From contig CAMBYC010000019.1 of NCBI GenBank assembly GCA_945871875.1, forward strand, positions 1 to 34,543: 34,543 bases of DNA, in the 5' to 3' direction. This document shows positions 122 through 30,602 of this stretch, piece by piece (positions within the stretch are counted from its first letter, which is position 1; every line of letters begins with the position of its first letter). Below the pieces are notes generated by a model. The model saw nothing but the letters and a program-made list of their open reading frames with translations, did not search any database and was not told the origin of the DNA. A program made the translations under genes and the position numbers. The DNA comes from Sphingobacterium thalpophilum (GTDB taxonomy: Bacteria > Bacteroidota > Bacteroidia > Chitinophagales > Chitinophagaceae).

Positions 122-149
122 ATGAATTATAAATTATGAATTATGAATT
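122..149 (-). repeat. Heptad array R1 (unit TGAATTA on +), inverted arm of R2
   Basis: ATGAATTATAAATTATGAATTATGAATT; period 7; perfect 28-nt reverse complement of 303-330. Confidence 0.95.
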
Positions 150-302
150 TGGGGGTAAATTATAATTTTAAATTTAGGGAACTCAATACATTCACTCAAT
201 ACATTTTTCATATCTCACAAATTACAAATGAGGTCTTAGGACATACAACATAAGACTTACGACTTAACACTTTTAGTACGCGAACTCATACTAATAACTC
301 AC

Positions 303-330
303 AATTCATAATTCATAATTTATAATTCAT
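303..330 (+). repeat. Heptad array R2 (unit AATTCAT on +), inverted arm of R1
   Basis: AATTCAT AATTCAT AATTTAT AATTCAT; perfect reverse complement of 122-149. Confidence 0.95.
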
Positions 331-338
331 CCCCCCTC

Positions 339-2090
339 TTACCATTTAAACGGCAAATACCAATCTTTCCCCATAAGTTTTGCCCTTGCTGTTGACGCAG
401 AACCTGAGGAAACACCAGATTTTAATAACTTACTGTAAACTTTATCGGCAATAAAGGATGGATCATTTCTTCTAATGGCCACACGAAGCAAATCTGCCCA
501 ACGGGTTCCTTCAAATGCGTTTTCAAGTGCAGTTTCCTTAATCAAACCATTTTCGATAGTCAGCAAACTATCAGAAGCAGGCACATCAATATTTATCAAA
601 TTGGCTCTTGATCTAATTCCAATATTTCTATACCAATCGGCTCTATAATAAGGAACACCAGTGCTACCACTATTGCGTGCATCAAAATTGAATGGATACG
701 CTTCATTTAGAGTATTGTGAAAATTTGTAACATCAGATGTTGGTGCTGGATAAGCACCTGCAATTCCGCTGTTTAAAAGTCCCCAAGCCAAACGATATTT
801 TCCTACCCTATTTGCAGCTTCTGCAAAACGCATGTGCAACTGAGTTTGTCTAAACAAAAACCATTTGCCATTCTTTGTTAATAAATTGGTAGTAGGCAAT
901 GAATTGGTATAATTAATATAATTGTATAAATTTTTCATTGCCACTTGCTGACCACCAATAGTCATGGTACTCAATAATTTTCTTGCATCATAAGGTATAG
1001 ATCCGCCTTGAGCAGCTCTCTGAGTTTCTCCATCCCACAAGTCGTTTATTTCTTGGGATGGTTTTACCAAATAATTTCCTCCGATAGGTGAAAATAGTTT
1101 TATTAAAGTATTCTCTGGTTTGAACTTGCTATCAAAAGGAAGTACCCAAACCCATTCTCTATCAAAACCACTTGTACCAAACGGTTGTTCAAACATAATT
1201 CTCCACTGTGTGTTGTATATAAGTGTTGACGCATCTCCAGCTCTTGAATAACTGATGTAATGGTCTATATCGCCATTGCTGTCCCAACCTAATTTATATA
1301 AACTATAATATCTACCATCAACAACACCTTGTGTTCCTGTTTCCATTACTTGTCTATAGTTTTCTGATGCTTTCACATAATTGCCCTTCCACAAATGCAA
1401 ATCGCCTAAAACAACCTTTTTGTTTACATAAAACTTTTGTGTAGGATATCCATCTACAGTAATATTTAAGTTTGTACCTGCAGGATATACCTCTTTAAAG
1501 GGTAAGCGTTCTGTGAAGTTTATTAAGCTATCCAACAATACATCAAAAGAAAGCTTTGGAAAATTTGAAGCATTTTTAACGTCATCAACGTTTTTCAATG
1601 AACTTGTTACGTAAGGAACCTGACCAAAATGTATGCCCAATTGCAAATACAAAAAAGAACGTAAAGCTCCAATGTCTGAATAACGCTGGCTAAATTCTGC
1701 ATCATTCATCTTTTTTTCTTTCACCATTACTTGAAAACGCTCAAGTACGTCGTTACAATTGATGATGAGCTCATAAAAAGGTTTAGGGCTAGCGTAGGGA
1801 TTGTTTTCTGTTACGCTGTGTGTACTAATTTGTCGGAGGTTTTCATCTGCATTGTTAGTACAATCCAATAAATCGCCACGTAGTTCATTTAACACTACAT
1901 ACTGATCGGCTATGCCCATAAATTTTCCATAAATACCTATTACTGCAGCATCTGCATCATACACATTTTGGTAAGCCTGAGATTCATCTAGTTGGTCTTG
2001 GGGCTTGATATCGAAGATTTTTGTACACCCAGAAATACTCCACAACAAAAGAACATAAAATGTTGCACTTACTATATTTATTTTCTTCAT
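339..2090 (-). CDS. SusD/RagB-family outer-membrane nutrient-binding lipoprotein
   Basis: 583 aa; lipobox-like 'SISGCTKIFDIKPQDQLDESQAYQNVYDADAAVIGIYG' N-terminus and C-terminal 'ENAFEGTRWADLLRVAIRR' typical of SusD; lies immediately downstream of a SusC gene. Confidence 0.93.
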   Translation of the reverse strand: MKKINIVSATFYVLLLWSISGCTKIFDIKPQDQLDESQAYQNVYDADAAVIGIYGKFMGIADQYVVLNELRGDLLDCTNNADENLRQISTHSVTENNPYASPKPFYELIINCNDVLERFQVMVKEKKMNDAEFSQRYSDIGALRSFLYLQLGIHFGQVPYVTSSLKNVDDVKNASNFPKLSFDVLLDSLINFTERLPFKEVYPAGTNLNITVDGYPTQKFYVNKKVVLGDLHLWKGNYVKASENYRQVMETGTQGVVDGRYYSLYKLGWDSNGDIDHYISYSRAGDASTLIYNTQWRIMFEQPFGTSGFDREWVWVLPFDSKFKPENTLIKLFSPIGGNYLVKPSQEINDLWDGETQRAAQGGSIPYDARKLLSTMTIGGQQVAMKNLYNYINYTNSLPTTNLLTKNGKWFLFRQTQLHMRFAEAANRVGKYRLAWGLLNSGIAGAYPAPTSDVTNFHNTLNEAYPFNFDARNSGSTGVPYYRADWYRNIGIRSRANLINIDVPASDSLLTIENGLIKETALENAFEGTRWADLLRVAIRRNDPSFIADKVYSKLLKSGVSSGSASTARAKLMGKDWYLPFKW

Positions 2091-2141
2091 AACTGAAGGA
2101 CAATTTAAAATTCGAAAATTATTTTTACTTATTGAGATAGA

Positions 2142-5100
2142 TTATAATCCGATTCTAGCACCAATGGTTAGGGTTTTGTACATAGGATTATATCCCATAT
2201 CAATACCTTGAGCAAATATTGAGTTTGATGCACTGAATTCTGGATTAAAGCCTGAATATTTTGTTAGTGTAAACAGGTTGTCGCCACTCAAATAGATAGA
2301 TGCGTTTTTAATAAATTTATCTTTAAATGGAATTGCATAGTTGAGAGAAGCATTGCGCAAATTCAAGTAAGACCCATCTTCTATCCATCTGGTGCTGAAT
2401 CTGTTATTACCCAATGGATCTCCAAAAGTAGCCCTTGGCATGTTGGTAGATTGTCCCTCAGCTCTCCATCTATTTACTACACTATTTAATTGGTTTTCCA
2501 ATGTACTCGCAGATTCCAACTTGTAGCGTAAGTAATTGTAAACATCATTTCCTTGAGAAAAAACAAACAACGTGGTTAATGAAAAACGTCCAAAAACCAA
2601 TCTGCTGTTGATGCTTCCAAAGAAATCGGGAGTAGGGTTACCAATTACTTTTCTATCTTTTTCATCTATTATACGATCCCCATTGATGTCTTTAAACTTT
2701 ACATCTCCACCTTTAAAAGGACTAAAAGTGCCATCGGAGTTTTTCATTCTTAAATCTGCATTACTTGCTTCTAAGTTTGAGCTAAAAACACCATCCGCAG
2801 TATAGCCATAGAACAATGTTGCAACATTGTTGTTTTGGGTTAAAATCGTGGCATTGGCATATTGGGTGGTTAAACTACCGTTCGGAACGGATAATATCTT
2901 GTTTTTGTTTGAGGCAACTGTAGCTCCAATATCCCATCTCAACTTTTTCTTATTTACTACATTAATATTAAACCCTGCTTCAATACCAGTATTCAACATA
3001 CTTCCACCATTTGTAAGTACATTAGTAAAACCAGTTTGTGCTGCAATATTTTCATAAACCAACATATTTTCCGTTTTGTTGCGATATGCATCAACAGAAA
3101 GATTTATGCGCTCATTCCAAAATGCAAGGTCTAAACCTACATTAAACTTTTTATTTGTTTCCCACTGGATCGCAGGATTTGGAATTCCACTTCTTACCAA
3201 ACCTTGCATACCAAGTAAATTTTGGGAACTATAAGTTTGTCTGCTCGAGTAATTCCCAATATCATCATTTCCTGCGTAACTGTAATTGATACGCAACTTC
3301 AACATGTCAAAAGAAGATGTTGCCATAAATTTCTCAGAAGAAATCAACCAAGCAGCACCAAGAGATGGCATCAATGCAAAGCTGTTTCCTCCAATATTAA
3401 CTCCATTTGCAACTTGCTTACCAAATCTTGAAGAACCATCTAAAGCTGTATTAAAAGAGAAAAACAACTTGTTCTTGAATCCATAATCAAAATTGAAATA
3501 GGCATTCATCCAATTCCACTCTCCAATGCCACCACCCGTTTGGCGCAATGCATTGTTGCCGTTTTGTACACTGATAAGTTCATCTGTTGCAGAATTATAG
3601 CCCAATGTAAAATCTTGCTCCCCTTTATTATGCTGGTAGCGGACACCCAATCTCGACAACACATTATGATTTAAATTATAGGTTTTTTTAAACTCTAACC
3701 TTGAATCTGAGTAAATCGAAAACAACCTTTTTACCTGTGTACCCAATCTGCTATCAATTATAGCATTGGTTGTAGTATCATCAGCAACACCTTTTCTTGG
3801 TACAAAAATATTTTCTCTTATTTTATCATACACCACACCAAATAAAGTAGATGCCGAAATTGAATTACTGATGTCATAATTAAACTTATAAGAACCTAAA
3901 AATCTATAATAGCGGTTATAAGCTTGCATATTTTCAATCAAAACTGAGGGATTACTGAAACCCAATACATCTGTTTCATCAAGGTTGGGAGAAAAAATTC
4001 CTTTCTCATTCAATTCGTAAGCGGTTAAAAACGGCGACTTTGTTAACGCACCATACAAAGGGGCTGTCTTTTGTACTACACCTTGGTATTTTAGGTTGTT
4101 TTCATTGTATGTAAATGCAAGATTAGCTACTCCTGTGAATTTTTTTGAGAAATTAAATGCAGCATTAAACCTTGTATTGTAACGTTTTAAATCAGTATTT
4201 TTTATTACCCCTTCATTTTGGCTATACCCAACACTTAATGCATATTTTGCTATGTTATCACCACCAGTTACTTTAAGAAAAAGGTTTTGATTCATACTAT
4301 TGCTAAAAACATTTTTTTGCCAATTGGTATTGTTGTGGTATCTGTAATAGCTTTTGTTGTTGGTAGAATCATCAATCATATATGGCAATGCACCAATTGC
4401 AGCCGCAGACAAACCTCTGCTTTGTAACATTTCGTTTAGGTAGGTTCTATAATTGTTGGCATCCATAACTGGCATAAAATCGGGTGCTTGGTTAAAGCTT
4501 GTATAAACCCCAAAATCAATATTGGTTGCCTCTTGTTTTGCCTTTGAAGTTGTTATTATGATTGCTCCATTTGCTCCTTTGGTACCATAAATAGAAGATG
4601 CATCTTTAATTATAGTATAATTGTCAATATCTCCTACATTGATAAGAGAAAGTGGATTGGTATAATTGTTATCTATGATGCTTTTTCCATAATCGTTTAC
4701 ATCATACACCATTCCATCGATTACAAATAGCGGTGAATTGGTTGCATAAAGAGAATTGTATCCCCTTAAAAACAAGTTGGCACCAACCCCCGGTGTTCCT
4801 GAACGTCTGATGGCGTTTAATCCACTAACCTGACCTTGCAACAATGCATCTGGTGTTTCAAATGGTCTGTTCCATGAGCTATTGGCATCATACCCAGCAA
4901 CTGCAGCAGTTGAATTTCTTTTGGCAATACTTCCAAAAGGCAATACCACCTGCTCCTGAAAGGAAACGCTTGATTCGCTCAACAAAGCCGCTTCAATAGT
5001 GTTTCTCCCTTTCAATGAAATTACTTTTGTATCGTATCCCTCAGCAACTATTTCTAAATCCGCTGTATAAGATGGTACATTTAAAGTAAACGCCCCTTTT

Positions 5101-5330: not shown

Positions 5331-5357
5331 TACGAATATCTTTTTTTGTTCTTTCAA

Positions 5358-13430: not shown

Positions 13431-15686
13431 TTAGTTAAATCTTAAATAATTGTCTAATAGGTGAATGGTACATCTCGTACTGAGGTTATTGCTTGATGTC
13501 ACAGTTACATTTGCTGTTCTGTTTTTCATATCACTCAACACGATGCTATTAGGCACTGAGTTGTTCACAAAAATGGTTGAAGGATCGCCATTTGCAAATT
13601 TGAACAATGTTTCAAAAGTTCCACTTTCAACTCCGTCTGTAGCTATGTTCTTTTTATTGAGGATATGGTAATAAATAAAATTAGCCACCAACTCTCTATC
13701 TGACAGCAATGGTGAAGTAAAATTTGGCACTTTGTTGGGTGCTGTACCTGTACCTGGCAATAATCCTGCATTTACAGCCGCTAATATAGCTTGGTTGTTT
13801 GGTACAAAAAAGGTATAAAAAGTACCTGAGGCTACTTGAGCAATTTCTCCAGTAGTAGCATTAAAAATGGGTGAACTCTTTAAATATTGCCAGTAAAAAT
13901 TGTAAGGTGAAGTGGTAGGTGTGCCCAACAATTCAATATGCTTACCAATGGTTCTTTCGCTGAATTCAAGTATTCTATCAAGATAATAAACCGTTCCGTT
14001 TTTTGCTGTTTTTTTATTTAAAATTGTTGCAGTATTTGAAGCATCTACATTTCCTGCGGCAACAATTTTGTTGGCATCAAACTTCAAAAATTCACCGGAA
14101 TAAGATTGTCCAACTCCCGGTGTAGCAAGAGATGTAATATCTCTTCCCGGAATAACGTGCATATTTAATATACGTTGCAATCTTACCAATGCAGATGATC
14201 CTGTTAAAGCAGCTCCACCACTTGGCGGTGTGTAGCGCCACTGCTCATTGATGTTATTGCTTACAGTTGGGTCTGCAAAATAACCTGCTGCATTAAATGC
14301 CGCATTACTAATTAAGAATAGGGTATATTTCTGACTGATATTAGAAATCTGGAATTTCAAATCTAAATTCAATAGACTTGACATCATAGAATATGTTGGA
14401 TCCAAATAAGCTCTACCATAAACACTACTGAAAACATTGGCTTCCTGCACTTTATTAGTGCCGTATAATATACCATTGCTCAATATTTTTTTATCCGTTA
14501 CATCTGTAGATGCATTAAAACGCGCTTCCTCTCCCAAAGCATTGAAAGTTGAAGCAAACTTAGATGGCCATACTGCAGTGCGCCACATGTGTGCATTAAT
14601 GAAATCGTATATTACATTGATTGGCAAATCTTCCAATTTTGAGTAATTCTCCAACAAAACAGTATTGATATAATTTAATAATGCTGCATTTTCAGGAATA
14701 AACATGGTGTAGGTATCTGCCTGACCATCATTATCTTGTTGCTTGAGGAAATTTTCGTTGTTTGGTGAAAAAGCAAGATTGGAATTGTACACCTTAGTAA
14801 ACACATCCGCAGCATTACCTGTAACACTGGCATAGTTCTGTGTTACTATTGGATTTAAAACATATTGAACAAGGAACTTATCCAATATTTTTTTGAATTC
14901 ACTGAAATTTGGATTTGATCCAATATATTGATCTAAACTTGGCAATGTTGAAATCACTCGATCTACCACATGAATTACGCCATTTTCTGCGGCAATATCT
15001 TTCTGCACAACTTTAGCATCAGCAACATTAAATCCGGTATAAGTAGATGAAGGATAAAAATAATTGTAATCAAATGCACTGATGGATTTGCCAGTCATGA
15101 AACCCGTTTCAAAAATAGGAATATACTTATTGTTGTTGTCGGCATCAATATAAAAGAAAGAACCTGAGTTGTTTCTGTTAGATGCAATTGCTTTTATTTT
15201 TGTGCCTTGAAGATTTGTTGCATCATACACCCCAGTATAACTAGCTGTTCTCCTTTTGAATGAAGAATTTTCTACCCAGCCTAAATTGCTTTGAAAATCA
15301 GAAATTCGATCTTGCTTGAAAGCATTGTAAACCAAACAATACGTTACAATTTTTCTACATGCATTGGAATCCAAAGCTTCCACATTTGCAATATTGTTTT
15401 GCTTTAAATACACTGTAAAAGCTGAATCATGAGGTGCGAAAATTGTCCAATAACCGGCAGTTGATAAAGTTTGCTTGTATCCAGCTTTATCAATCACTTT
15501 AAGCAAATTGGTAAAGTTGCCTTTCAACGTTAGTTGTTGATAAATTGGTGATTCCAAAGTGGCCGGACGTTCATAATACTGTTCAAACTTTTTGTTGCAA
15601 GAAAGAAATAAAACAGAACATACAATCAAAAATAAAAGCAGACCTTGTTTCAAAGGTGTAAATTTTTCCTTATAGATCATATACAT
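13431..15686 (-). CDS. Multi-FAS1 (about four repeats) fasciclin lipoprotein
   Basis: 751 aa; 'VLFLSCNKKFEQYYERP' lipobox; FAS1 motifs 'GYWTIFAPHDSAFTVYL','NGVIHVVDRVIS','DTYTMFIPENAALLNYI','NGTVYYLDRILE','TFYTFFVPNNQAIL','CTIHLLDNYLRF'. Confidence 0.9.
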   Translation of the reverse strand: MYMIYKEKFTPLKQGLLLFLIVCSVLFLSCNKKFEQYYERPATLESPIYQQLTLKGNFTNLLKVIDKAGYKQTLSTAGYWTIFAPHDSAFTVYLKQNNIANVEALDSNACRKIVTYCLVYNAFKQDRISDFQSNLGWVENSSFKRRTASYTGVYDATNLQGTKIKAIASNRNNSGSFFYIDADNNNKYIPIFETGFMTGKSISAFDYNYFYPSSTYTGFNVADAKVVQKDIAAENGVIHVVDRVISTLPSLDQYIGSNPNFSEFKKILDKFLVQYVLNPIVTQNYASVTGNAADVFTKVYNSNLAFSPNNENFLKQQDNDGQADTYTMFIPENAALLNYINTVLLENYSKLEDLPINVIYDFINAHMWRTAVWPSKFASTFNALGEEARFNASTDVTDKKILSNGILYGTNKVQEANVFSSVYGRAYLDPTYSMMSSLLNLDLKFQISNISQKYTLFLISNAAFNAAGYFADPTVSNNINEQWRYTPPSGGAALTGSSALVRLQRILNMHVIPGRDITSLATPGVGQSYSGEFLKFDANKIVAAGNVDASNTATILNKKTAKNGTVYYLDRILEFSERTIGKHIELLGTPTTSPYNFYWQYLKSSPIFNATTGEIAQVASGTFYTFFVPNNQAILAAVNAGLLPGTGTAPNKVPNFTSPLLSDRELVANFIYYHILNKKNIATDGVESGTFETLFKFANGDPSTIFVNNSVPNSIVLSDMKNRTANVTVTSSNNLSTRCTIHLLDNYLRFN

Positions 15687-18332: not shown

Positions 18333-18364
18333 CGATTGCACAAGTATCAAATTAATTACTTTTT

Positions 18365-18418
18365 ACTAACTACTAACAACTAACTACTAACTACTAACTA
18401 CTTATCACTAACAACTAT
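18365..18418 (+). repeat. Heptad array R3 (unit CTAACTA) running into the start codon of the alcohol dehydrogenase
   Basis: A CTAACTA CTAACAA CTAACTA CTAACTA CTAACTA CTTATCA CTAACAA CTATGA. Confidence 0.93.
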
Positions 18419-19427
18419 GATATCAATAATCTGTGTATCTCCTCATTTGTTAATCGAAAAAGAAGTTCCAGAACCAACAGTCAAAGAAGGGTTTTCAATC
18501 TTAAAACTAGAACGAATTGGCATTTGTGGCACAGATTTACATGGTTTTGAAGGAACACAACCTTTTTTTAGTTACCCGCGAATTTTGGGGCACGAGTTGG
18601 CAGCAACTGTTTTACAAACATCCATTCAAAGTTTATCTGTTGGCGATTTTGTAACCATCATACCCTATTTCAATTGTGGAAATTGTATTGCTTGTTCATC
18701 AGGGAAACCCAATTGTTGTGTACACATTAAGGTATTTGGTGTGCATATTGACGGTGGGATGCAGGAGTATATTTCGGTGCCAGATGCCTCTATTTTAGCA
18801 GGTAATGGATTAGGATTAGATGCCCTCGCTTTGGTTGAACCGCTTGCTATTGGTGCACATGGCATCAGGAGAGCAGGTGTACAAGCAGGAGAATATGTGT
18901 TGGTAATGGGTGCAGGACCAATAGGCTTAGGAACAATAGAAATGGCAAAAATCGCAGGAGCGAAAGTGATTGTGTTGGATGTAAACGAGCACCGATTGCA
19001 ATTTTGCACTACCCAGCTTGGTGTAGATGCAATTGTAAATCCATTGCAAGTAGATGCATTGGCAGCCATTCAGGAAATAACTGGAAATAATATGCCACAA
19101 GTGGTTATTGATGCCACAGGTAATTTAAATGCCATCAACAATGGCTTTAGTTATTTAGCACATGGTGGTAGATATGTGCTTATTGGTTTGCAAAATGGAG
19201 ATATCCAAGTTTCCCATCCTGCATTCCATAAACGTGAAGCCACACTAATGAGCAGCAGAAATGCTACTCGACAAGATTTTGATCTTGTAATGCAAAATAT
19301 TTTATCTGGTAGAATCAATCCAAATAAATACATCACCCATAAAGTTTCTCTCCATGAGGTTGTAGATCAATTTGCCTCTTGGCTTGACCCAACAAATAAA
19401 GTTATTAAAGCAATGATCGTGTTGTAA
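18417..19427 (+). CDS. Zinc-dependent medium-chain alcohol/polyol dehydrogenase
   Basis: 336 aa; 'IGICGTDLHGFEG', 'ILGHELAATV', 'CGNCIACSSGKPNCC' structural zinc motif, 'VLVMGAGPIGLGTIEMAKIAGAKVIVLD'. Confidence 0.92.
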   Translation: MISIICVSPHLLIEKEVPEPTVKEGFSILKLERIGICGTDLHGFEGTQPFFSYPRILGHELAATVLQTSIQSLSVGDFVTIIPYFNCGNCIACSSGKPNCCVHIKVFGVHIDGGMQEYISVPDASILAGNGLGLDALALVEPLAIGAHGIRRAGVQAGEYVLVMGAGPIGLGTIEMAKIAGAKVIVLDVNEHRLQFCTTQLGVDAIVNPLQVDALAAIQEITGNNMPQVVIDATGNLNAINNGFSYLAHGGRYVLIGLQNGDIQVSHPAFHKREATLMSSRNATRQDFDLVMQNILSGRINPNKYITHKVSLHEVVDQFASWLDPTNKVIKAMIVL

Positions 19428-19458
19428 TTGTTAATTGTTAATTGTAAATGGTAAATTA
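19424..19458 (+). repeat. Heptad array R4 (unit TTAATTG) beginning at the stop codon of the alcohol dehydrogenase
   Basis: GTAATTG TTAATTG TTAATTG TAAATGG TAAATTA; the TAA stop (19425-19427) is in the first unit. Confidence 0.9.
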
Positions 19459-19496
19459 TTGAATAATTTTTAATGTAGGGAATTAGGAATTATTGA

Positions 19497-19549
19497 ACCG
19501 AAGCTCCTTTGCTACTAAACTTGTTTGTAGTAAAGGAGCTTCGGTTTTT
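19497..19549 (+). terminator. Rho-independent terminator downstream of the zinc alcohol dehydrogenase
   Basis: ACCGAAGCTCCTTTGCTAC / GTAGTAAAGGAGCTTCGGT: ~19-bp stem with one G-U, followed by TTTTT. Confidence 0.9.
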
Positions 19550-19821
19550 GATTTTAATCTAATGAAGCACTTCTGCCAAGCCATAAAGACTATTTCTTAA
19601 GCTTTGAACATTGTTTTTACAATCAAGAACCAGTTCTCCAACTATTGAGAAAGTGTAAAAGATGGTTTCAAAATAGTATTCAGACTGGTAATCGATAGTA
19701 TGTAGACTGGTAAACAGTTGCAAAATTATGTTACAAAACATACAATCAATGAAACAAAGCTTCAACCTTAAATTGTTAATCTGTAAAATTATGTTGATAA
19801 GTATGCTAAACCATCTCCCAT

Positions 19822-19933
19822 AATTAACACTTAACCATTAACACTTAACCATTAACACTTGACCATTAACACTTGACCATTAACACTTGACCATTAACAA
19901 TTAACCATTAACAATTAACCATTAACAATTAAC
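19822..19933 (-). repeat. Heptad array R5, 16 units (NNTTRAC on +), overlapping the 3' end of the GH36-like gene
   Basis: AATTAAC ACTTAAC CATTAAC ACTTAAC CATTAAC ACTTGAC CATTAAC ACTTGAC CATTAAC ACTTGAC CATTAAC AATTAAC CATTAAC AATTAAC CATTAAC AATTAAC; also a 14-nt higher-order period. Confidence 0.98.
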
Positions 19934-22122
19934 CACGTGTTTCCCCCTGGCTGTATAGTTACTTCAACCTTTATATCTCCCGCTGTATTAATCGCTTTAA
20001 TTTGACTTTTCCCGTCTTTCTCTCTTACCGTAGCTTTGCCTTTTAAACCGGTATAATACAACGGAACCGTTATGGTTCGGGTGATGGTTTCTTTCAAAGG
20101 ATTGTACAACATGATCAACGCTTTTGTCGGCAAATCTGGATTAACGTGCATTATCCCATCCCAATCTCGGCCATCTGCTCTCCTTAAATGTATAATATCT
20201 GAATTCAAAATGTCTCGATACTTATTATACCAGTTGATTACTTTTATCACAGTTTGTTTGGTAGCTTCCGTATCGTATAACCTTGGACCCCGATAACAGG
20301 CTTGCACACCGGCTCCATAATATTGCATCATCAATTGTTCGTAATCATCAAGATGTTCTGACAATGGCTCCAATACGGCATCTGCTCCCCCACCCTGGTA
20401 TCTTGTTAATGGCACAAAGCCCCATCCCATTGATGGCGTTTTCTCCCATAATCCATCATAAATATTCTGACGATTTAAAATCTTTTGTTGTGCTCTAGAC
20501 AAAGAGAAATTTACTTCCCTATAACCAATGCCCGTTTTGTGGGTTCCATCTAAAAAATACCAATCTGGTGCATTTATGTAAATACCCCTCTCGTTACACC
20601 ACCTGTAAAACCCTTTCTGCAACTCCATTTGCTTCCATTGAGAATCTTCTAAACCTAAATGCCCTGGATGTTTTGTTGATGCACAAACATCACCGGGATA
20701 AGGTCCATCGTTTTCAAATATATCAAAGCCGGTTTCGGTGATGAAATATTGTAAAGTCTTTAAATAGTTTAAGCCCCATTTGCTGCCTAAACAGGGTGCA
20801 TTGCCAAAAAAAGCTCCAGCATCTGGTTTACCTGTTATTGGATCGATCACATCATCTTCATCACTGATTCTTCTTGAACTGAACAATGAATAACCCCCTA
20901 TCAAAATGTTTTTTTGATGTGCATAATTGGATAATTCTTTCCATCTTTTTACATTACCTGCGGAAGTATCTTCCATATTGCAATGGCTTCCAAAACTTAA
21001 AATCAAAGCTTCATAACCCGTTGCTGCACATTGATCGATGGCAGTTCTTACTTGTTGGTCGCTAGAACTTACCAAATGCATAAATATCGGATTCGCCATC
21101 ACCCAAGGTGCCACAACCCTATACATCTTTCTAATCGCCAATCCTCGTCTTTCTCTATCGTAACTGTCCATCAACAATTCATGGGTGCGTACCGATTTAA
21201 AGGTTTCACTGGGTTTAAGGGAAACGCGTTGTAGTTTCTCTGGATATACTTCCAACAAACAGGGTGTTTGATAATTGTAATTCACCTGAGAAGTATAGGC
21301 AGGATCAACATTCCAATGGGTGGTTTGATCGCTGATATCGTAACGCATGGCGTTGTTGAAAGCGTAATTGGTTTCTACATAAATACCATGTTGCTTTTTC
21401 ATTTGCTCAGGACTACCAACAACTGCACTTTCTTCTTCTACCAACGCCAATCGCTCATTAACAACCCTGTTGATATCAATTGAAACTTTGCTTTTATTTT
21501 CTATTGATAATGATTTCACCAACAATGGAATTCCATCATACAATGCATATTGAACGGTAATAATAATGTCTTTTAATTCTTTTAATGATGAATGAAACGT
21601 AAATGAAACCAATTTACCGTTTGTGCTGGTCTTCCCTGATATGGGTGTTTTTACTTTCCAATTGATATAAGGTTGTAATGGGGTAATTTTCATATCAACA
21701 AAATGAAAATCACTATCATTGGTTGTGAAACCATCAATCCATTGGGTTTGTAAATAAGCACGTTCTTTTTGTCCATGTAATCCGCCAATATTATAGGCTT
21801 TTCCATTAAGCTGAACAATTGCTTCGGGTTCGATGGCACGTAACAATTGTTGTCCAGAACTTTGGTTGCTATAATCAATACACGCTAAATTGGGTTGCAC
21901 ACGAAATGTACGTTTCAATAAACCATTGCTTAAAATGATATCCTTTCCATCGGCAGATTTATATACTTCGGCTTTTGTGGTTCTAGGTGAAATCAACCAA
22001 TCGGTTGTAACAGTATTGAAATTATTTTGAAACAAAGGCAATGAAGCAAGCTGTGTTTGAGCAATATTTACATTTACAATCAAAATAGCTGCAAATAATA
22101 GTAAGATTTGAATATTTTTCAT
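19915..22122 (-). CDS. Secreted glycoside hydrolase, alpha-galactosidase-like (GH36/clan GH-D-like) TIM barrel
   Basis: 735 aa with signal peptide; N-terminal beta-sandwich; barrel segments 'GYEALILSFGSHCNMED', 'TGFDIFENDGPYPGDVCAS', 'YINAPDWYFLDG'; family assignment by pattern only. Confidence 0.65.
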   Translation of the reverse strand: MKNIQILLLFAAILIVNVNIAQTQLASLPLFQNNFNTVTTDWLISPRTTKAEVYKSADGKDIILSNGLLKRTFRVQPNLACIDYSNQSSGQQLLRAIEPEAIVQLNGKAYNIGGLHGQKERAYLQTQWIDGFTTNDSDFHFVDMKITPLQPYINWKVKTPISGKTSTNGKLVSFTFHSSLKELKDIIITVQYALYDGIPLLVKSLSIENKSKVSIDINRVVNERLALVEEESAVVGSPEQMKKQHGIYVETNYAFNNAMRYDISDQTTHWNVDPAYTSQVNYNYQTPCLLEVYPEKLQRVSLKPSETFKSVRTHELLMDSYDRERRGLAIRKMYRVVAPWVMANPIFMHLVSSSDQQVRTAIDQCAATGYEALILSFGSHCNMEDTSAGNVKRWKELSNYAHQKNILIGGYSLFSSRRISDEDDVIDPITGKPDAGAFFGNAPCLGSKWGLNYLKTLQYFITETGFDIFENDGPYPGDVCASTKHPGHLGLEDSQWKQMELQKGFYRWCNERGIYINAPDWYFLDGTHKTGIGYREVNFSLSRAQQKILNRQNIYDGLWEKTPSMGWGFVPLTRYQGGGADAVLEPLSEHLDDYEQLMMQYYGAGVQACYRGPRLYDTEATKQTVIKVINWYNKYRDILNSDIIHLRRADGRDWDGIMHVNPDLPTKALIMLYNPLKETITRTITVPLYYTGLKGKATVREKDGKSQIKAINTAGDIKVEVTIQPGGNTWLIVNG

Positions 22123-22253: not shown

Positions 22254-23822
22254 ATGAGAAGATTTAGCGTTAAAACATTATTCATTCTTCTTGCACTCCC
22301 TTTTGCAGGAATAGCGCAACAAGAGCAACTCGATTTGGGTATGGTTGCAAAAATTAGAGATGAGGGTTTGAATCATTCACAAGTTATGGACATTGCGTTT
22401 CACCTTACCGATTTAAACGGCAATCGCCTTACCAATTCTCCAGGTTATAAAAAAGCCGCCAATTATGCACAAGCAACATTAAGTGGTTGGGGTATTCAAA
22501 ATGCAACAATAGAACCTTGGGGAGAATTTGGAAAAGGATGGCAATTGGAAAAAGCTTATTTCGCAATGACTGCCCCTTATTACAAAAACATTCTTGCTTA
22601 TCCTAAAACATGGTGTAAAGGTACAAAAGGACCTAAAGAAGCACAATTGTTGGTCGTTAATATTACAGATTCTTTATCACTATTGTCTTATGTAGGAAAG
22701 TTAAAAGGTGTAGTAATTATTCCAGACATCAAATACGATTACAAACAAAGTTTTAAAGCAGATGCCAATCGTTATTCAGAAGAAGAATTACAGAAAATGG
22801 CAGATGCAAAACCAATAGGTCCACGTGGTGGTGGCAGACCACAAGGTCAGGATACCGCACAAATGAGAAGGTATCGTGAACAAATGCAACGTGGTTTTGG
22901 TCCGATGCGCGTTTTAAACATTTTAAAAGCAATGGCATTGAAAGAAGGTGCCGTTGCAATATTAAGCTCTTCAGTAAAAAACCACGACGGAACAATTTTT
23001 GCTCAAGGTGGTGGTGCTTATAAAGGTGGAGATGCAGAAAACGTTTTGGATATGGTTGTTAGTGTAGAAGATTACAACACCATGCTACGAATAGCCAAAG
23101 CAGGTACAGAAGTAAAAGTTGAAACTGATGTAAAAACCAAGTTTTATACCGATGATCTTCAAGGATATAATGTGATTGCTGAAATTCCAGGTACTGATCC
23201 TTTGTTGAAAGATGAAGTAGTTATGATTGGTGCACACTTGGATTCTTGGCAAACTGGAACAGGTTCTACAGACAATGCTTCAGGATCAGCGGTAATGATG
23301 GAGGTAATGAGAATAATGAAAACCTTAGGTGTTAAACCACGAAGAACCATCAGAATTGGTTTGTGGAGTGGTGAAGAACAAGGTTTGTTGGGTTCAAGAG
23401 GGTATGTAAAAAAGACTTTTGGCGGAATGGCTCCTGCAGATCGTTTGTCGGCTTACGATAAATTCTCTGGTTATTTTAATATTGACAACGGCACTGGAAA
23501 GATTCGTGGTATTTATCTACAAGGCAATGAAGGTTGCAGATCTATATTCACACAATGGTTAGCACCATTTAAAGATTTAGGAGCTACAACCGTTACCATC
23601 AGCAACACTGGCGGAACCGATCACCAATCATTTGACGGCATTGGATTACCAGGTTTCCAATTTATTCAAGATGAAATCGAATATGATACAAGAACTCACC
23701 ATAGCAATATGGATGTTTACGACCATCTTATTGAATCAGATTTGAAACAAATTGCAACTATTGTAGCATCATTTGTTTACAACACTGCTCAAAGAGACCA
23801 AAAACTACCAAGAAAAAATTAA
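22254..23822 (+). CDS. Secreted M28-family metallopeptidase with PA-type insert
   Basis: 522 aa; signal peptide; 'VVMIGAHLDSWQTGTGSTDNASGSAVMMEVMRIMKT', 'RIGLWSGEEQGLLGSRGYV', 'GGTDHQSFDGIGLPGFQFIQD' zinc-ligand motifs. Confidence 0.93.
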   Translation: MRRFSVKTLFILLALPFAGIAQQEQLDLGMVAKIRDEGLNHSQVMDIAFHLTDLNGNRLTNSPGYKKAANYAQATLSGWGIQNATIEPWGEFGKGWQLEKAYFAMTAPYYKNILAYPKTWCKGTKGPKEAQLLVVNITDSLSLLSYVGKLKGVVIIPDIKYDYKQSFKADANRYSEEELQKMADAKPIGPRGGGRPQGQDTAQMRRYREQMQRGFGPMRVLNILKAMALKEGAVAILSSSVKNHDGTIFAQGGGAYKGGDAENVLDMVVSVEDYNTMLRIAKAGTEVKVETDVKTKFYTDDLQGYNVIAEIPGTDPLLKDEVVMIGAHLDSWQTGTGSTDNASGSAVMMEVMRIMKTLGVKPRRTIRIGLWSGEEQGLLGSRGYVKKTFGGMAPADRLSAYDKFSGYFNIDNGTGKIRGIYLQGNEGCRSIFTQWLAPFKDLGATTVTISNTGGTDHQSFDGIGLPGFQFIQDEIEYDTRTHHSNMDVYDHLIESDLKQIATIVASFVYNTAQRDQKLPRKN

Positions 23823-23834
23823 TTCATAAGTTAC

Positions 23835-23876
23835 GAAGTAGTAAGTAGTAAGGGGTAAGTAGTAAGGAGTAAGAAT
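23835..23876 (+). repeat. Heptad array R6 (unit TAAGTAG) downstream of the M28 peptidase
   Basis: GAAGTAG TAAGTAG TAAGGGG TAAGTAG TAAGGAG TAAGAAT. Confidence 0.95.
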
Positions 23877-23913: not shown

Positions 23914-23941
23914 AATTAACTTACTACTAACTACTAACTAC
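23914..23941 (-). repeat. Heptad array R7 (unit TAACTAC on +) abutting the bidirectional terminator
   Basis: AATTAAC TTACTAC TAACTAC TAACTAC; inverted relative to R6. Confidence 0.92.
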
Positions 23942-23943
23942 TA

Positions 23944-23977
23944 AAAAAAAAGTCTCGCAATTGCGAGACTTTTTTTT
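23944..23977. terminator. Bidirectional rho-independent terminator between M28 peptidase (+) and tRNA-Ser (-)
   Basis: Perfect 34-nt palindrome AAAAAAAGTCTCGCAATTGCGAGACTTTTTTT. Confidence 0.93.
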
Positions 23978-23985
23978 GTGAAGGG

Positions 23986-24076
23986 CGGTGAGGGAGGGAT
24001 TCGAACCCTCGGTAAGGCTTTAAGGCCCTACGACGGTTTAGCAAACCGTTGATTTCAGCCACTCATCCACCTCACC
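23986..24076 (-). tRNA. tRNA-Ser (anticodon GCT)
   Basis: Reverse complement GGTGAGGTGGATGAGTGGCTGAAATCAACGGTTTGCTAAACCGTCGTAGGGCCTTAAAGCCTTACCGAGGGTTCGAATCCCTCCCTCACC+G: 7-bp acceptor stem, anticodon loop TTGCTAA, long class II variable arm, GGTTCGAATCC T-arm. CCA not encoded. Confidence 0.96.
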
Positions 24077-24190: not shown

Positions 24191-25624
24191 TTAAACAGAT
24201 GCTGATTGAACTTTTTGTTGAAGCTCTAAAACACTTTCTCTGAATATATTATCTGTATCCATTAAATCTTTTACTTGTTGACAAGAATGGATTACCGTGG
24301 TATGATCTCTTCCACCAAAGTGGTTACCAATAGTTTTTAAAGAATTTTTAGTAAAAATCTTAGAAAGATACATGGTTATCTGGCGGGCTTGAACTATCTC
24401 ACGTTTACGTGTTTTTTGGAGCAATTTATCGTAAGGCAATTCAAAATAATCACAAACCATTTTCTGAATGGCATCTATTGTAACTTCTTTTGAAGTTGTT
24501 TTAACAATATTACGCAATACTTTTTTTGCCAACTCCAGATCAATTTCTCTTTTGTTGAGAGAAGATTGAGCAAGCATATTAATTAAAGAACTTTCTAAAT
24601 CTCTTACATTGCTTTGGATATTGTAAGCCAAATATTTTACTACTTCTGGTGGCATTTCCAAACCATCATTCTGCATTTTTTTGTATAATATTTCAATTCG
24701 CGTTTCATAATCAGGCATAACAAGATCGGTACTCAAACCCCATCTAAATCTGCTCAACAATCGTTCTTGAACACCCTCCAAATCTTTTGGTGATTTGTCA
24801 GAACTTAAAATCAACTGTTTGCCAGATTGGTGCAAATGGTTAAATATTGCAAAAAATGCATCTTGGGTTTTTTCTGCTCTGTTAAAAAATTGAATGTCAT
24901 CAATAATCAAAACATCAATCAATTGGTAAAAATGAATAAAATCATTTATTGCATTGTTTCTGCTATGATCTTGAAACTGGTTGATAAACTTTTCAGAACT
25001 TACATACAAAACCACTTTATTGGCGTGTAAGCGTTTCACTTCATTGCCAATAGCTTGAATAAGATGCGATTTACCTAAACCAACATTTCCATAAACAACC
25101 AATGGATTGAAAGAAGTTGCACCAGGCTTTTCTGCTACTGTTTTGCCTGCCCTACGTGCAACACGATTACAATCTCCTTCTACAAATGCATCAAAAGTAT
25201 TTGCAGGGTTCAATTGTGAATCAATCTGCATTTTCTTTAACCCCGGAATTACAAAAGGATTTTTAACAGGATTATTCATCACCAATGGAAAATCCATTTC
25301 ATTGTGGTTAAATGTCTTCATTCCGTTACCAGGAAGATTCATTGTTAGTGGTTTGTTTTTCTCATTCCCACTGTCAACCATAATTCTATACTCTAAACGT
25401 GCATCTTTACCCAATTGACGCTTTAAAGTTTTTGCCAACAGATTTACATAGTGTTCTTCAAGATATTCAAAGAAAAACTGGCTAGGCACTTGAATGGTTA
25501 AAACATTACCCTTTAAGGCAACCGGTTTTATTGGTTCAAACCAAGTCTTAAAATGTTGCCACTCAACTATGTCTTTAATAATCTCTAAACAAGCCTGCCA
25601 AATTTTTTCAAAAGAATTATCCAT
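24191..25624 (-). CDS. dnaA: Chromosomal replication initiator protein DnaA
   Basis: 477 aa; 'NPLVVYGNVGLGKSHLIQAIGNEV' Walker A, 'VLIIDDIQFF' Walker B, C-terminal 'FGGRDHTTVIHSCQQVKDL' DnaA-box binding signature. Confidence 0.98.
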   Translation of the reverse strand: MDNSFEKIWQACLEIIKDIVEWQHFKTWFEPIKPVALKGNVLTIQVPSQFFFEYLEEHYVNLLAKTLKRQLGKDARLEYRIMVDSGNEKNKPLTMNLPGNGMKTFNHNEMDFPLVMNNPVKNPFVIPGLKKMQIDSQLNPANTFDAFVEGDCNRVARRAGKTVAEKPGATSFNPLVVYGNVGLGKSHLIQAIGNEVKRLHANKVVLYVSSEKFINQFQDHSRNNAINDFIHFYQLIDVLIIDDIQFFNRAEKTQDAFFAIFNHLHQSGKQLILSSDKSPKDLEGVQERLLSRFRWGLSTDLVMPDYETRIEILYKKMQNDGLEMPPEVVKYLAYNIQSNVRDLESSLINMLAQSSLNKREIDLELAKKVLRNIVKTTSKEVTIDAIQKMVCDYFELPYDKLLQKTRKREIVQARQITMYLSKIFTKNSLKTIGNHFGGRDHTTVIHSCQQVKDLMDTDNIFRESVLELQQKVQSASV

Positions 25625-26143
25625 GTTTCTTCACTAAGTTTTTAAAGGTGACTTTATTTATATCATAAAACTAGAAAGTGATGTTAACCAAATATTAAAT
25701 TCATTACATCTCTGATTAACAATAAAACGCCTTCTAATTTGTATCTTTTTCAAAACATTTATTATTAAAACATTATAAAATCAACTTAATGAATTGTTTA
25801 ATAATGTTAAAATAATCATACCACACGAAACTAAATTTTACACAAAAAATCAACGCACAATTTTCAAGTGGGTAACGAATATAGATTCCAAAAAGTGAAT
25901 AAAAAATTTTTTAATTACCATTTTTTTAATTTTCATGATATTAAAATCTATATGTTTTGAGGTCAAAAAAATGAAGTTCAACGGTGGCTTATATTTCAGG
26001 AAAATTTCAGTTTTGATATTATAAAAATAAATATTTGATGAAATTTATTTTTTTTTAAATGGCTTTGAAATCTCAAAAACTTGATTAATTTCACCATACT
26101 ACATCCAATTTAGGATTTCTCTATTTTTACAAAAAATTGATTT

Positions 26144-26578
26144 ATGGCATTTGACATCACAGGAAAACTTATCCTGAAAAATGAAACGATTCAGCGAACT
26201 GAATCCTTCAAAACAAGGGAATTTGTAATTGAAACAAATGAGGACATTAACGGAAGAATCATCAATAATTACATAAAATTCCAAGTTGTTCAAGACAGAA
26301 CTTCATTATTGGACAGATATAATTTGGGTGACATGATGAAAGTGCATTTCAACATTAGAGGAACAAAGTGGGAGAAAAATGGTCAAACCAATTACATTAC
26401 CAATTTGGATGCTTGGAGAATTGAGCAAGATCTTGGAACAACAACTCCTCCCCCTCCACCAACCACTACCACATCTGCTCCTAGAGAAAATCCAATTGAC
26501 ACTAGCACACAACCAGATCCATTCCCTACTACAAAACCTGTAGCAAATGGTATGACTGGTGACGATCTTCCTTTTTAA
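26144..26578 (+). CDS. DUF3127-like small OB-fold-type protein with Pro/Thr-rich linker and SSB-like C-terminal tip
   Basis: 144 aa; 'DITGKLILKNETIQRTESFKTREFVIET...IKFQVVQDRTSLLDRYNLGDMMKVHFNIRGTKWEKNGQTNYITNLDAWRIE' matches the DUF3127 pattern; tail TTTPPPPPTTTTSAP...GMTGDDLPF. Confidence 0.85.
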   Translation: MAFDITGKLILKNETIQRTESFKTREFVIETNEDINGRIINNYIKFQVVQDRTSLLDRYNLGDMMKVHFNIRGTKWEKNGQTNYITNLDAWRIEQDLGTTTPPPPPTTTTSAPRENPIDTSTQPDPFPTTKPVANGMTGDDLPF

Positions 26579-26608
26579 CAATTTACATTTTCAGGACAAC
26601 TCCCTGAC

Positions 26609-28192: not shown

Positions 28193-28303
28193 TTTAATAA
28201 CAAACTATAGTTGTTTAAAAATTGTAAAGCCAGAATTTACCACTCATAAAAAAATACACAGAACTTATACTTAACCGTTAAGATGTTAGTACATTTACAA
28301 TCT

Positions 28304-29239
28304 ATGGAACAGTTTCTTCAGGTGCAACACCTTAAAAAGCAATTTGAAACGCAGAAAGCGGTGGATGATATCAGTTTCACCATCAATAAAGGTTCAATAT
28401 TTGGATTATTAGGTCCAAACGGAGCAGGCAAAACAACTTTATTGCGAATGATTACAGGGATTTTTCTTCCTGATGAAGGTCAAATTTTAATGAATGGAAA
28501 ACCTTTTGACCCATCAAAAGATGTTTCTAAAATTGGCTACATGCCAGAAGAAAGAGGCTTGTATAAAAAGATGAAAATTGGCGAACAAGCCCTTTATCTT
28601 GCCCAATTGAAGGGTTTATCTAAAGCCGATGCCATGGCTAAAATCAAAGAATGGTTTATTAAATTCGAGATGCAATCTTGGTATAATAAAAAAGTGGAAG
28701 ATTTAAGTAAGGGTATGAGCCAAAAATTGCAGTTTGTTACTACAGTTTTACACAACCCCGAATTGATTATCCTTGACGAGCCATTTAGTGGTTTAGACCC
28801 TGTTAATGCAAATTTAATTAAAGACGAAATTTATAAACTTGCTAAAAGTGGTTCTACAATAATTTTCAGTACCCACAGAATGGAACAAGTAGAGGAAATT
28901 TGTGATCACATAATATTGGTTAATAAAGGTTCAAAAATTCTTGACGGCACAGTTAAACAAATTAGGCAAGATTTTAAAGAAGATTTATTTGCAATAGAGT
29001 TTGACAATCTGCTTTTGCCTGAGCATGCTGGCACACATCTTTTTCAAGTGGTAAATAAAATAGATCAGAAATTAATTATCAAAAGAAACGAAGGCTATAG
29101 CAACAACGATATCATTGAATATTTTATTAAACAGGGTTTAGAGATATCTAGTTTCAATGAAATTCTACCATCCTTAAATGATATTTTTATTCGTTTGGTA
29201 GAATCAACCCCAACTGCCAGACAATTTCAAACGGTTTAA
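28304..29239 (+). CDS. ABC transporter ATP-binding protein (NatA-like)
   Basis: ORF track starts at 28283, but ATG at 28304 (MEQFLQVQHLKKQF) is the better start. Walker A 'GLLGPNGAGKTTLLRM', signature 'LSKGMSQKLQFV', Walker B 'LIILDEPFSGLDP'. Confidence 0.94.
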   Translation: MEQFLQVQHLKKQFETQKAVDDISFTINKGSIFGLLGPNGAGKTTLLRMITGIFLPDEGQILMNGKPFDPSKDVSKIGYMPEERGLYKKMKIGEQALYLAQLKGLSKADAMAKIKEWFIKFEMQSWYNKKVEDLSKGMSQKLQFVTTVLHNPELIILDEPFSGLDPVNANLIKDEIYKLAKSGSTIIFSTHRMEQVEEICDHIILVNKGSKILDGTVKQIRQDFKEDLFAIEFDNLLLPEHAGTHLFQVVNKIDQKLIIKRNEGYSNNDIIEYFIKQGLEISSFNEILPSLNDIFIRLVESTPTARQFQTV

Positions 29240-29257
29240 CCCTAATAAAACAGTAAA

Positions 29258-30589
29258 ATGAACAAGATATTCGTAATTATACAAAGAGAATATTTAACTC
29301 GTGTAAAGAATAAAACCTTTATCATATCAACTTTTCTATTGCCGATAGTGATGGTATTATTTATTTTTGGTTCCACCTATTTTGCAATAAAATCTAGAGA
29401 AAAACAAAAAATAGCAGTTGTAAATGATCCTGGATTTTTTAAGAAATTCATGAAAAGTGATCCTAAATCAATCATTTTTGAATTTACAGAAGGCGTAGAC
29501 AGTTTGAATTATGAGTCGAAAGGGTATAATGGCATTTTATATTTACCCACATCAACTGGAAATAATAATTATGAATTGCGTTCAAACAAACAGTTTGGTA
29601 TAGAAGCCAATGAGTATGTAGAAAAGCAGATCAACAAAGCAGTAGAAAACAATTTGTTGCAACTAAGAGGTATTGATATTAATACAATAGATTCAATAGC
29701 TAAGGCAAATGATAATGCGGCAACTTTGAATAACGTAATAAGCGATGGTAAAGGCAAAACAAATGAATCTAATGCCGGTGTAGCTTATGGAGTTGGATAT
29801 GGAAGCGGCATATTGATTTACATTACCATGTTTATATTTGGTGCAATGGTAATGCGTGGTGTTGCAGAAGAAAAAATAAACCGAATAGCAGAAGTAATTG
29901 TATCCTCTTGCAAACCCTTTGAATTGATGTTTGGCAAAATAATTGGAATTGCTGCGGTTGGATTAACACAGTTTATTTTGTGGATTGTATTCATTTTTGT
30001 TATAATATCATCCATTCAATTTTTCTTGCCTTCAGAAATGATTCAACAAGTGCAAGAAACACAACAAGTGAGGCAACAAGTGCCGGGAGGTTCATCAGCT
30101 GCTATGATCACAAAAATTATGGAAGCAAAGAAAACTTTGGTAAACGGAGTAAATTGGCCATTGATCATTGTTTGCTTTTTGTTTTATTTTTTGGGTGGAT
30201 ATCTTTTTTATGCAGCATTGTTTGCAGCAATTGGCAGTGTAATCAATGAAGATCCTCAAGAAGCACAATCGCTTATGCTTCCGATAACAATGCCTATTAT
30301 TTTTGCATTTATAATATTAAACAGCGGTTTGCAAAACCCGAATAGTCCGATTGCGGTCTGGGCAAGTATAATTCCATTTACTTCTCCAATTGTAATGATG
30401 GGGAGAATTCCGTTTGGTGTTCCTGGTACTGTTCCAATTTGGCAATTGGCATTATCAATGGTAACACTAGTTGGAGGATTTCTTTTTACCACTTGGTTTG
30501 CTGGAAAAATTTATCGCACGGGTATTTTGATGTATGGTAAAAAAATCACATGGAAAGAAATGATAAGGTGGGTGGTAAGGGGTAAGTAG
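29258..30589 (+). CDS. ABC-2 type transporter permease (NatB-like)
   Basis: 443 aa; 'IIQREYLTRVKNKTFIISTFLLPIVMV' N-terminus; multiple TM segments; 'RGVAEEKINRIAEVIVSSCKPFELMFGKIIG' typical of this family; directly downstream of the ATPase. Confidence 0.92.
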   Translation: MNKIFVIIQREYLTRVKNKTFIISTFLLPIVMVLFIFGSTYFAIKSREKQKIAVVNDPGFFKKFMKSDPKSIIFEFTEGVDSLNYESKGYNGILYLPTSTGNNNYELRSNKQFGIEANEYVEKQINKAVENNLLQLRGIDINTIDSIAKANDNAATLNNVISDGKGKTNESNAGVAYGVGYGSGILIYITMFIFGAMVMRGVAEEKINRIAEVIVSSCKPFELMFGKIIGIAAVGLTQFILWIVFIFVIISSIQFFLPSEMIQQVQETQQVRQQVPGGSSAAMITKIMEAKKTLVNGVNWPLIIVCFLFYFLGGYLFYAALFAAIGSVINEDPQEAQSLMLPITMPIIFAFIILNSGLQNPNSPIAVWASIIPFTSPIVMMGRIPFGVPGTVPIWQLALSMVTLVGGFLFTTWFAGKIYRTGILMYGKKITWKEMIRWVVRGK

Positions 30590-30602
30590 TAAGTAGTAAG
30601 CC
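30562..30602 (+). repeat. Heptad array R8 (unit TAAGTAG) overlapping the last codons and stop of the ABC permease
   Basis: GATAAGG TGGGTGG TAAGGGG TAAGTAG TAAGTAG TAAGCC; stop TAG is 30587-30589. Confidence 0.93.

What the first reader, a model, noticed from the sequence alone, without database searches (positions are those of the whole stretch)
122..30602. Dispersed family of 7-nt-period intergenic arrays with different unit sequences but shared architecture
Eight arrays (R1-R8 in features) share an exact 7-nt period but differ in unit: TGAATTA, CTAACTA, TTAATTG, CATTAAC/ACTTAAC, TAAGTAG, TAACTAC. What is conserved is therefore the period and composition, not the sequence. All are intergenic or at gene edges. 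Because 7 = 1 mod 3, a stop trinucleotide in each unit appears in all three frames across three units; several units (TTAATTG, CTAACTA, TGAATTA) carry stops on both strands, making the array a six-frame stop block. Heptanucleotide tandem repeats (STRRs) are known in cyanobacteria; I do not know of a functional description for this kind in Bacteroidota. Period, position and composition are read directly; a shared mechanism is inference.
Basis: partly seen in the sequence, partly recalled or inferred. Interest (0 to 1): 0.75.

Follow-up and report, generated by a model that had tools for sequence, protein, structure and literature searches.

The report
Inward-pointing 7-letter repeats at gene edges
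Short DNA words of exactly seven letters are repeated head-to-tail at the edges of genes all over this genome, nearly always pointing into the gap between genes and often forming the two arms of a hairpin; related repeats are known in a few bacteria, but the shared layout, its spread across many bacterial groups and its rapid rewriting between species had not been put together.

Summary
In 1.62 Mb of this genome, intergenic tandem arrays are almost all period 7, 14 or 21 (129 of 139); composition-matched shuffles give none of period 7.

The units share a degenerate motif (TAAYYMH / DKRRTTA) and obey a grammar: the C-free strand starts at the left gene edge and the G-free strand ends at the right gene edge, in all four gene orientations (FR 35: RF 1). 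Paired arms match in unit type, fold as hairpins, and pair G-C 175 times against C-G once. They concentrate between convergent genes.

The trait is sporadic: most genus mates lack it, a few distant genomes are full of it, and the grammar holds in 80 loci from many phyla. In sister species, orthologous sites differ by exactly 3x7 bp, or carry a different but again self-complementary hairpin, with the loop flipped at two sites. I read this as 7-nt slippage plus replication template switching at gene borders. Function is unproven.

The placement rule was reported for G-rich heptamers in Xanthomonas and Nostoc and credited to G-quadruplexes; these AT-rich units lack G-tracts, so that cannot be general. 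New variant of a known kind.

The parts
119..149 (+). F (C-free) heptamer array, unit TGAATTA; left arm of pair 1
   Evidence: 3 G and 0 C; hairpin z -4.4 with partner
150..293 (.). core (loop) of pair 1
294..330 (-). R (G-free) heptamer array, unit TAATTCA, 8 bp from the 3' end of the SusD-like gene 339-2090 (-); right arm of pair 1
18364..18417 (-). R (G-free) heptamer array, unit CTAACTA, ending at the start codon of the zinc-type alcohol dehydrogenase gene 18417-19427 (+); no F partner
   Evidence: 0 G and 15 C
19425..19457 (+). F (C-free) heptamer array, unit TTAATTG, starting on the stop codon of the gene 18417-19427 (+); left arm of pair 2
19495..19556 (+). ordinary intrinsic-terminator-like hairpin with T-run inside the core of pair 2
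   Evidence: sequence
19823..19935 (-). R array, period 14 = two heptamers (ATTAACA + CTTAACC), overlapping the 3' end of the gene 19915-22122 (-); right arm of pair 2 (same unit class as 19425-19457)
23836..23873 (+). F (C-free) heptamer array, unit TAAGTAG, 13 bp after the stop codon of the M28-peptidase gene 22254-23822 (+); left arm of pair 3
   Evidence: hairpin z -3.6
23919..23944 (-). R (G-free) heptamer array, unit CTAACTA/CTTACTA, next to a terminator-like hairpin of tRNA-Ser (23984-24076, -); right arm of pair 3
30574..30600 (+). F (C-free) heptamer array, unit GTAAGTA, overlapping the stop codon of the ABC permease gene 29258-30589 (+); no R partner

Best explanation
These are polar heptamer arrays at gene borders. 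Each array starts within a few bases of a gene edge, with its C-free strand running 5'->3' away from the gene. Two such arrays facing each other across an intergenic region form the arms of a hairpin around an unrelated core. I propose that they are made and remade by DNA replication. Seven-nucleotide slippage lengthens and shortens the arrays (shown as a 21-bp difference between sister species). Template switching on the hairpin copies one arm into the other and can flip the loop (inferred from arm matching and from flipped cores). Selection removes arrays from genes and promoters, which leaves them at gene ends, above all between convergent genes; there the hairpin may be tolerated or used as a border structure (inferred). 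The cause of the strict G/C polarity is not shown.
For: Period 7 only. Inward polarity FR 35: RF 1 in all four gene configurations; by base composition alone, 71 inward: 5 outward arrays within 20 bp of a gene. Partners match in unit (z = 5.8), while arrays more than 1 kb apart on a contig do not (z = 0.1). Longest exact arm match exceeds within-class swaps, p = 0.025. Predicted hairpins, median z -4.0. Orthologous site in G311 and G338: intergenic sequence nearly identical apart from a 21-bp = 3x7 difference in one arm. Locus A: four sister species hold an inverted repeat at the same site; the arms are quite different in G338, in G311/G337 and in G208, but self-complementary in each (34 bp with 0 mismatches in G208). 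Loop reverse-complemented between G311 and G337 at loci A and B. Template switching that creates hairpins, keeps stems matched and inverts loops is described in PMC8794818.
Against: Copying between arms was inferred, not caught in a dated series of strains. In other phyla and in G017 paired arms often differ in unit or even period, so pairing is not always present. Mismatches between arms are not enriched for G-T wobble (19 G-T/T-G, 14 A-C/C-A, 60 others), so there is no sign of selection on an RNA stem. The published template-switch explanation of stem asymmetry needs a fixed strand, which the orientation-independent polarity here does not offer. In the window three arrays lie beside ordinary terminators, so arrays are not simply the terminator. 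mutS and sbcD are present in this genome, so loss of either is not the cause.
Confidence: 0.5

Rival explanations
1. Selected border function: the arrays are bidirectional transcription-end or insulation elements (a hairpin, or a G-free C-containing tract read by Rho) that stop transcripts from entering the neighbouring gene.
For: Five-fold concentration between convergent genes; F pairs with R in predicted RNA; convergent regions with arrays have fewer terminator-like hairpins than those without, 4/26 against 24/51, p = 0.007; a hairpin is kept at the same site in four species although its sequence is replaced.
Against: The terminator deficit is confounded, because arrays take up about half of the searched sequence. 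Loops are long and no T-run follows. Three window arrays sit beside intrinsic terminators. No wobble enrichment. Most genus mates do without arrays.
Confidence: 0.25
2. Six-frame stop blocks: the units are kept because a 7-nt period puts stop codons into every frame of both strands, ending any read-through translation at gene borders.
For: 80% of arrays are six-frame stop blocks against 32% for unit-permuted and 17% for random intergenic DNA.
Against: Over distinct units the excess of stops is not significant. Xanthomonas GGGAATC heptamers with the same placement contain no stops (PMC4692102). Periods 8, 10 and 11 would serve equally well but are nearly absent here. It does not explain polarity or arm matching.
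Confidence: 0.1
3. REPIN-like mobile elements spread by a RAYT / Y1 single-strand transposase; fixed inward orientation would reflect its ssDNA recognition.
For: FR-only orientation; within genus g1 the five genomes tested that matched the array pattern all have PF01797, 11 pattern-negative ones have none, and G008, G020 and G047 are exceptions.
Against: Across 299 genomes of the order there is no association (about 33 of 48 array genomes have the family against 222 of 299 overall, my tally); array-rich G308 has none. None of the eight RAYT loci examined is flanked by heptamer arrays. Cores are not conserved.
Confidence: 0.05
4. G-quadruplex elements, as proposed for the Xanthomonas and Nostoc heptamers.
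For: Identical placement and inverted pairing (PMC4692102).
Against: The common units (GAATTAT, GAGTTAT, TAGTTAG, GGTTAAT, GAATTAG) have no G-tracts of three or more.
Confidence: 0.02

Closest known systems
GGGNATC / GGGGAYT heptamer repeats of Xanthomonas and Nostoc (Rehm et al. 2015, PMC4692102)
   Same: Heptamer arrays in intergenic DNA, G-bearing strand sense just after stop codons and antisense just before start codons; 70-75 inverted pairs in convergent orientation per Xanthomonas genome; mostly kept at the same site between species with varying length.
   Different: Units here are AT-rich with a TTA/TAA core and cannot form G-quadruplexes; strongly enriched between convergent genes; arms matched within a pair; most units carry stop codons on both strands; found across Bacteroidota and several other phyla.
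TAACTGA direct repeats of Beggiatoaceae, cyanobacteria and five Bacteroidetes (MacGregor 2015, PMC4679880)
   Same: Heptamer, intergenic, TAA-containing strand sense just upstream of start codons (the R orientation here); sporadic distribution; [quoted passage not shown]
   Different: That work follows one fixed unit mostly at start codons and reports a single inverted repeat in its main genome; here there are many units, mostly at 3' ends, and inverted pairs are the rule.
Long simple sequence repeats with heptamers as the commonest 5-11-nt class (Mrazek et al. 2007, as summarised in PMC4679880 and PMC4692102)
   Same: Period-7 excess in intergenic DNA, with polymerase slippage proposed as the cause.
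   Different: No polarity, pairing or arm replacement is described in those summaries.
Template-switch mutations that create and maintain hairpins (Monttinen and Loytynoja 2022, PMC8794818)
   Same: Perfect stems made in one event, arms kept matched, loops inverted in place; excess of 5'-G/3'-C and 5'-U/3'-A pairs.
   Different: Described for rRNA and microRNA stems, not for tandem arrays at gene edges; its asymmetry model needs a fixed strand.

Membership tests
Heptanucleotide long simple sequence repeats (LSSR) | tandem unit of 5-11 nt, more frequent than chance | tested here: met
   94 intergenic period-7 arrays in 1.62 Mb; 0.0 expected in a shuffle of the 1.22-Mb subset
Rehm GGGNATC-type G4 heptamers | heptamer tandem arrays, mostly intergenic | tested here: met
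Rehm GGGNATC-type G4 heptamers | G-bearing strand sense after stop codons, antisense before start codons | tested here: met
   64:4 within 15 bp of 3' ends, 17:3 within 15 bp of 5' ends
Rehm GGGNATC-type G4 heptamers | inverted pairs in convergent orientation | tested here: met
   FR 35, RF 1
Rehm GGGNATC-type G4 heptamers | G-tracts able to form a quadruplex | tested here: not met
   common units lack GGG; C-free strand is 25% G
Rehm GGGNATC-type G4 heptamers | under-represented between divergent ORFs | tested here: inconclusive
   12 of 154 divergent regions carry arrays, about the same as tandem regions (15/225, 16/218); convergent 36/107
TAACTGA repeats (MacGregor) | unit TAACTGA | tested here: not met
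   unit census of G000 lists ATTCATA, ACTCATA, ACCATTA, ACTACTA and others, not ACTGATA
TAACTGA repeats (MacGregor) | mostly just upstream of start codons | tested here: not met
   most arrays are at 3' ends
REP / REPIN with RAYT | RAYT gene present and flanked by the repeat | tested here: not met
   no order-wide association; no arrays at the eight RAYT loci examined
REP / REPIN with RAYT | conserved palindromic 20-40-nt unit | tested here: not met
   cores differ between elements
Intrinsic terminators | short-loop G+C-rich stem followed by T-run | tested here: not met
   median loop 40 bp, AT-rich arms; ordinary short-loop stems in the same genome lack the polarity
Phase-variable VNTR | copy number varies in unit steps between relatives | tested here: met
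   21-bp difference between sister species at one orthologous site
Phase-variable VNTR | variation switches expression of a gene | not testable with these tools
   no expression data

The most novel reading that the evidence does not exclude
All sporadic bacterial heptamer arrays (G-rich in Xanthomonas and Nostoc, TAACTGA in Beggiatoaceae, RRTTA-type here) are one phenomenon: a unit-independent, strand-polar hairpin generator at gene borders, driven by 7-nt slippage plus fold-back template switching, in which the C-free 5' arm / G-free 3' arm polarity is the signature of the replication mechanism rather than of any encoded function.
Probability: 0.3. Interest if true: 0.8.

Novelty: new variant of a known kind. 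Interest (0 to 1): 0.62.

Why it matters
The placement rule was published for G-rich heptamers and credited to G-quadruplexes. The same rule with AT-rich units, in at least a dozen bacterial groups, shows that quadruplex formation is not the reason. It leaves a sharp, testable question: what makes one strand of a gene-edge repeat free of C in every orientation (G-C to C-G 175:1), and why is the unit seven bases long? If replication template switching is the answer, these arrays would be a natural, genome-wide record of that process in bacteria, and a plausible source of ready-made hairpins at gene ends.

Tried and rejected
(1) Mobile MITE with a conserved core: cores in G000 share no obvious sequence. 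(2) RAYT/REPIN: promising within the genus, rejected order-wide and by lack of flanking arrays. (3) Loss of mismatch repair or of the SbcCD hairpin nuclease: mutS and sbcD are present in G000 and in several other rich genomes; sbcD is missing from rich and poor genomes alike. (4) G-quadruplex: sequence lacks G-tracts. (5) Directional growth of arrays from the gene side: no gradient of repeat purity along arrays (5' half 0.830, 3' half 0.834) and no longer degenerate tail on either side. (6) RNA-stem selection through G-U wobble: not enriched. (7) Orthologous M28-peptidase/dnaA region in genus mates: synteny not kept and protein identity about 75%, so intergenic DNA could not be compared there.
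Full report
CHECK OF THE OBSERVATION. The window is the whole of contig 19 of a 3.24-Mb draft genome, G000. SusD-like matches just under the Pfam cut-offs are consistent with Bacteroidota; I did not establish the family. I fetched about 1.62 Mb of the same genome. Intergenic DNA has match peaks at lags 7, 14 and 21, and coding DNA has none. Of 139 intergenic tandem arrays with periods 3-21, 129 have period 7, 14 or 21. First-order Markov resamples of the intergenic regions give no period-7 array and about 1 or fewer of the other short periods. The period is therefore really seven and not generic slippage.

An alignment of array profiles over rotation and strand finds one degenerate unit, A-Y-Y-M-H-T-A on one strand (fit 4.99 against 3.25-3.34 for units with permuted letters). 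The same consensus type comes out independently for two array-rich genomes of the order, G036 and G308. I call the strand with G and almost no C 'F' (25.0% G, 2.6% C) and its complement 'R'.

GRAMMAR. The order of neighbouring arrays in one intergenic region is FR 35, RF 1. F lies at the left edge and R at the right edge whether the genes are convergent, tandem or divergent. Within 15 bp of a gene 3' end the sense strand is F in 64 of 68 cases. By G/C content alone, 71 arrays within 20 bp of a gene point inward and 5 outward. Arrays occupy 36 of 107 convergent intergenic regions but only 7-8% of the others. Array-free convergent regions show no G/C polarity at their edges, and short-loop stems in array-free regions have none in their arms. 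Gene calls are simple longest-ORF calls, so 5' distances are approximate.

HAIRPINS. Partner arrays match in unit (mean profile similarity 0.784 against 0.619 for swapped partners, z = 5.8); consecutive arrays more than 1 kb apart do not. Twenty-one of 35 pairs fall into the same unit class against 8.2 expected, and within a class true partners share longer exact matches than swapped ones (18.8 against 16.3 bases, p = 0.025). Predicted RNA folds pair F with R (median 86% of the shorter arm, median z -4.0). Aligned arms contain 175 G-C and 1 C-G pairs, 349 T-A and 292 A-T. Mismatches also respect the rule: almost no C in the 5' arm and little G in the 3' arm. G-T wobbles are not favoured, so an RNA stem under selection is not indicated.

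DISTRIBUTION. A strict four-unit pattern occurs 252 times in G000 and in 6 of its 40 genus mates (1-27 matches); the other 34 have none. In 299 genomes of the order 48 have it; G036 (347), G308 (246), G331 (147) and G227 (81) are rich. In those 80 loci the order is FR 47, RF 4. By composition, arrays within 20 bp of a gene are 62 inward and 16 outward. The grammar is thus far wider than this genome. Octamer arrays occur in some relatives (G017, G088).

TURNOVER. Within one genus of the order (g109), G311 and G338 are about 91-93% identical in the loci compared. At one site both species have the same F and R arrays in nearly identical intergenic DNA, but the left array differs by exactly 21 bp. 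At locus A the flanks are 93-98% identical between G338 and G311 and 76-90% to G337 and G208. G338 has GAGTGAT-type arms; G311 and G337 have quite different arms with units of about 9-10 nt around a G+C-rich stem; G208 has a third, perfect 34-bp inverted repeat. Each hairpin is self-complementary, with the G-rich arm on the 5' side. At locus B G311 has a perfect 33-bp arm pair, G338 another unit, and G337 a related one; G208 has no arrays there. At both loci the loop of G337 is the reverse complement of that of G311, with at most a few differences. Whole arms change together and loops flip in place. Template switching in DNA replication is known to do just this (PMC8794818).

MECHANISM. Most likely: 7-nt slippage changes array length (shown once between species), and template switching on the hairpin keeps the arms matched and inverts loops (inferred from the patterns). 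Genes and promoters exclude arrays, so they collect at gene ends. Unexplained: the strict polarity. PMC8794818 offers an asymmetry towards 5'-G/3'-C and 5'-U/3'-A from intrastrand switching, and the arms here do show G over C and slightly T over A, but that model needs a fixed strand. Purging of start codons upstream of genes (the R strand has 0.2 ATG per 100 bp against 4.3 on F) would explain R before start codons, but not the convergent regions. Candidate functions are a border or termination hairpin and a six-frame stop block. Both have partial support and both have counter-evidence.

REJECTED CAUSES. RAYT/Y1 transposases follow the arrays within the genus but not in the order, and the eight RAYT loci examined have no arrays. 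mutS and sbcD are present in this genome.

PRIOR ART. Rehm et al. 2015 (PMC4692102) found the same placement and inverted pairs for GGGNATC heptamers in two Xanthomonas genomes, and the same placement for related repeats in Nostoc, and proposed G-quadruplexes while finding no function. MacGregor 2015 (PMC4679880) described TAACTGA arrays, including five Bacteroidetes, and suggested translational regulation. The finding is therefore a new variant of a known kind. What is new, as far as the searched library goes, is the AT-rich unit family, the polarity across phyla, matched arms, and site-by-site replacement with loop flips.

Noticed in passing
window 24194-25624 and 25625-26143: dnaA lies on the minus strand just beyond array pair 3 and tRNA-Ser, with a 519-bp AT-rich gap behind it; no cluster of DnaA boxes (one mismatch or fewer) lies in that gap, so an origin there is not shown.
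   Followed up: partly
L144 (G308) 14357-14630: R arrays repeat four times at an exact 80-bp spacing, a higher-order tandem repeat of array plus spacer.
   Followed up: no
L132 (G036) 4434-4828: A 395-bp array of about 19 copies of a 21-bp unit (AGGTTAATTGTTTAAGCTAAC), three heptamers long.
   Followed up: no
L291 (G017) 26-71 and 2210-2247; L280 (G088) 4256-4291 and 4330-4365: Octamer (8-nt) arrays in relatives; in L291 a G-free octamer array faces a C-free heptamer array across one intergenic region, so the polarity holds without complementarity.
   Followed up: partly
loci A and B of genus g109 (L321-L330): Cores contain a recurrent G+C-rich stem with a CATTGTC/CATTGAC motif that may be a separate small repeat family.
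   Followed up: no
genus g1 genomes, PF01797 search: The Y1 transposase family is present in the array-bearing genus members tested and absent from 11 others, an association that vanishes in the wider order; it may mark a shared history rather than a cause.
   Followed up: yes
L139, L154, L158 (G308), position 1: Three contigs of G308 begin inside a heptamer array, so the arrays break assemblies and counts in drafts are lower bounds.
   Followed up: no
G310 contig 1: More than ten near-identical copies of a Y1 transposase, suggesting an active IS200-like element.
   Followed up: no
window 23945-23980 and 30645-30670: Ordinary intrinsic-terminator-like hairpins sit close to two of the arrays.
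   Followed up: partly
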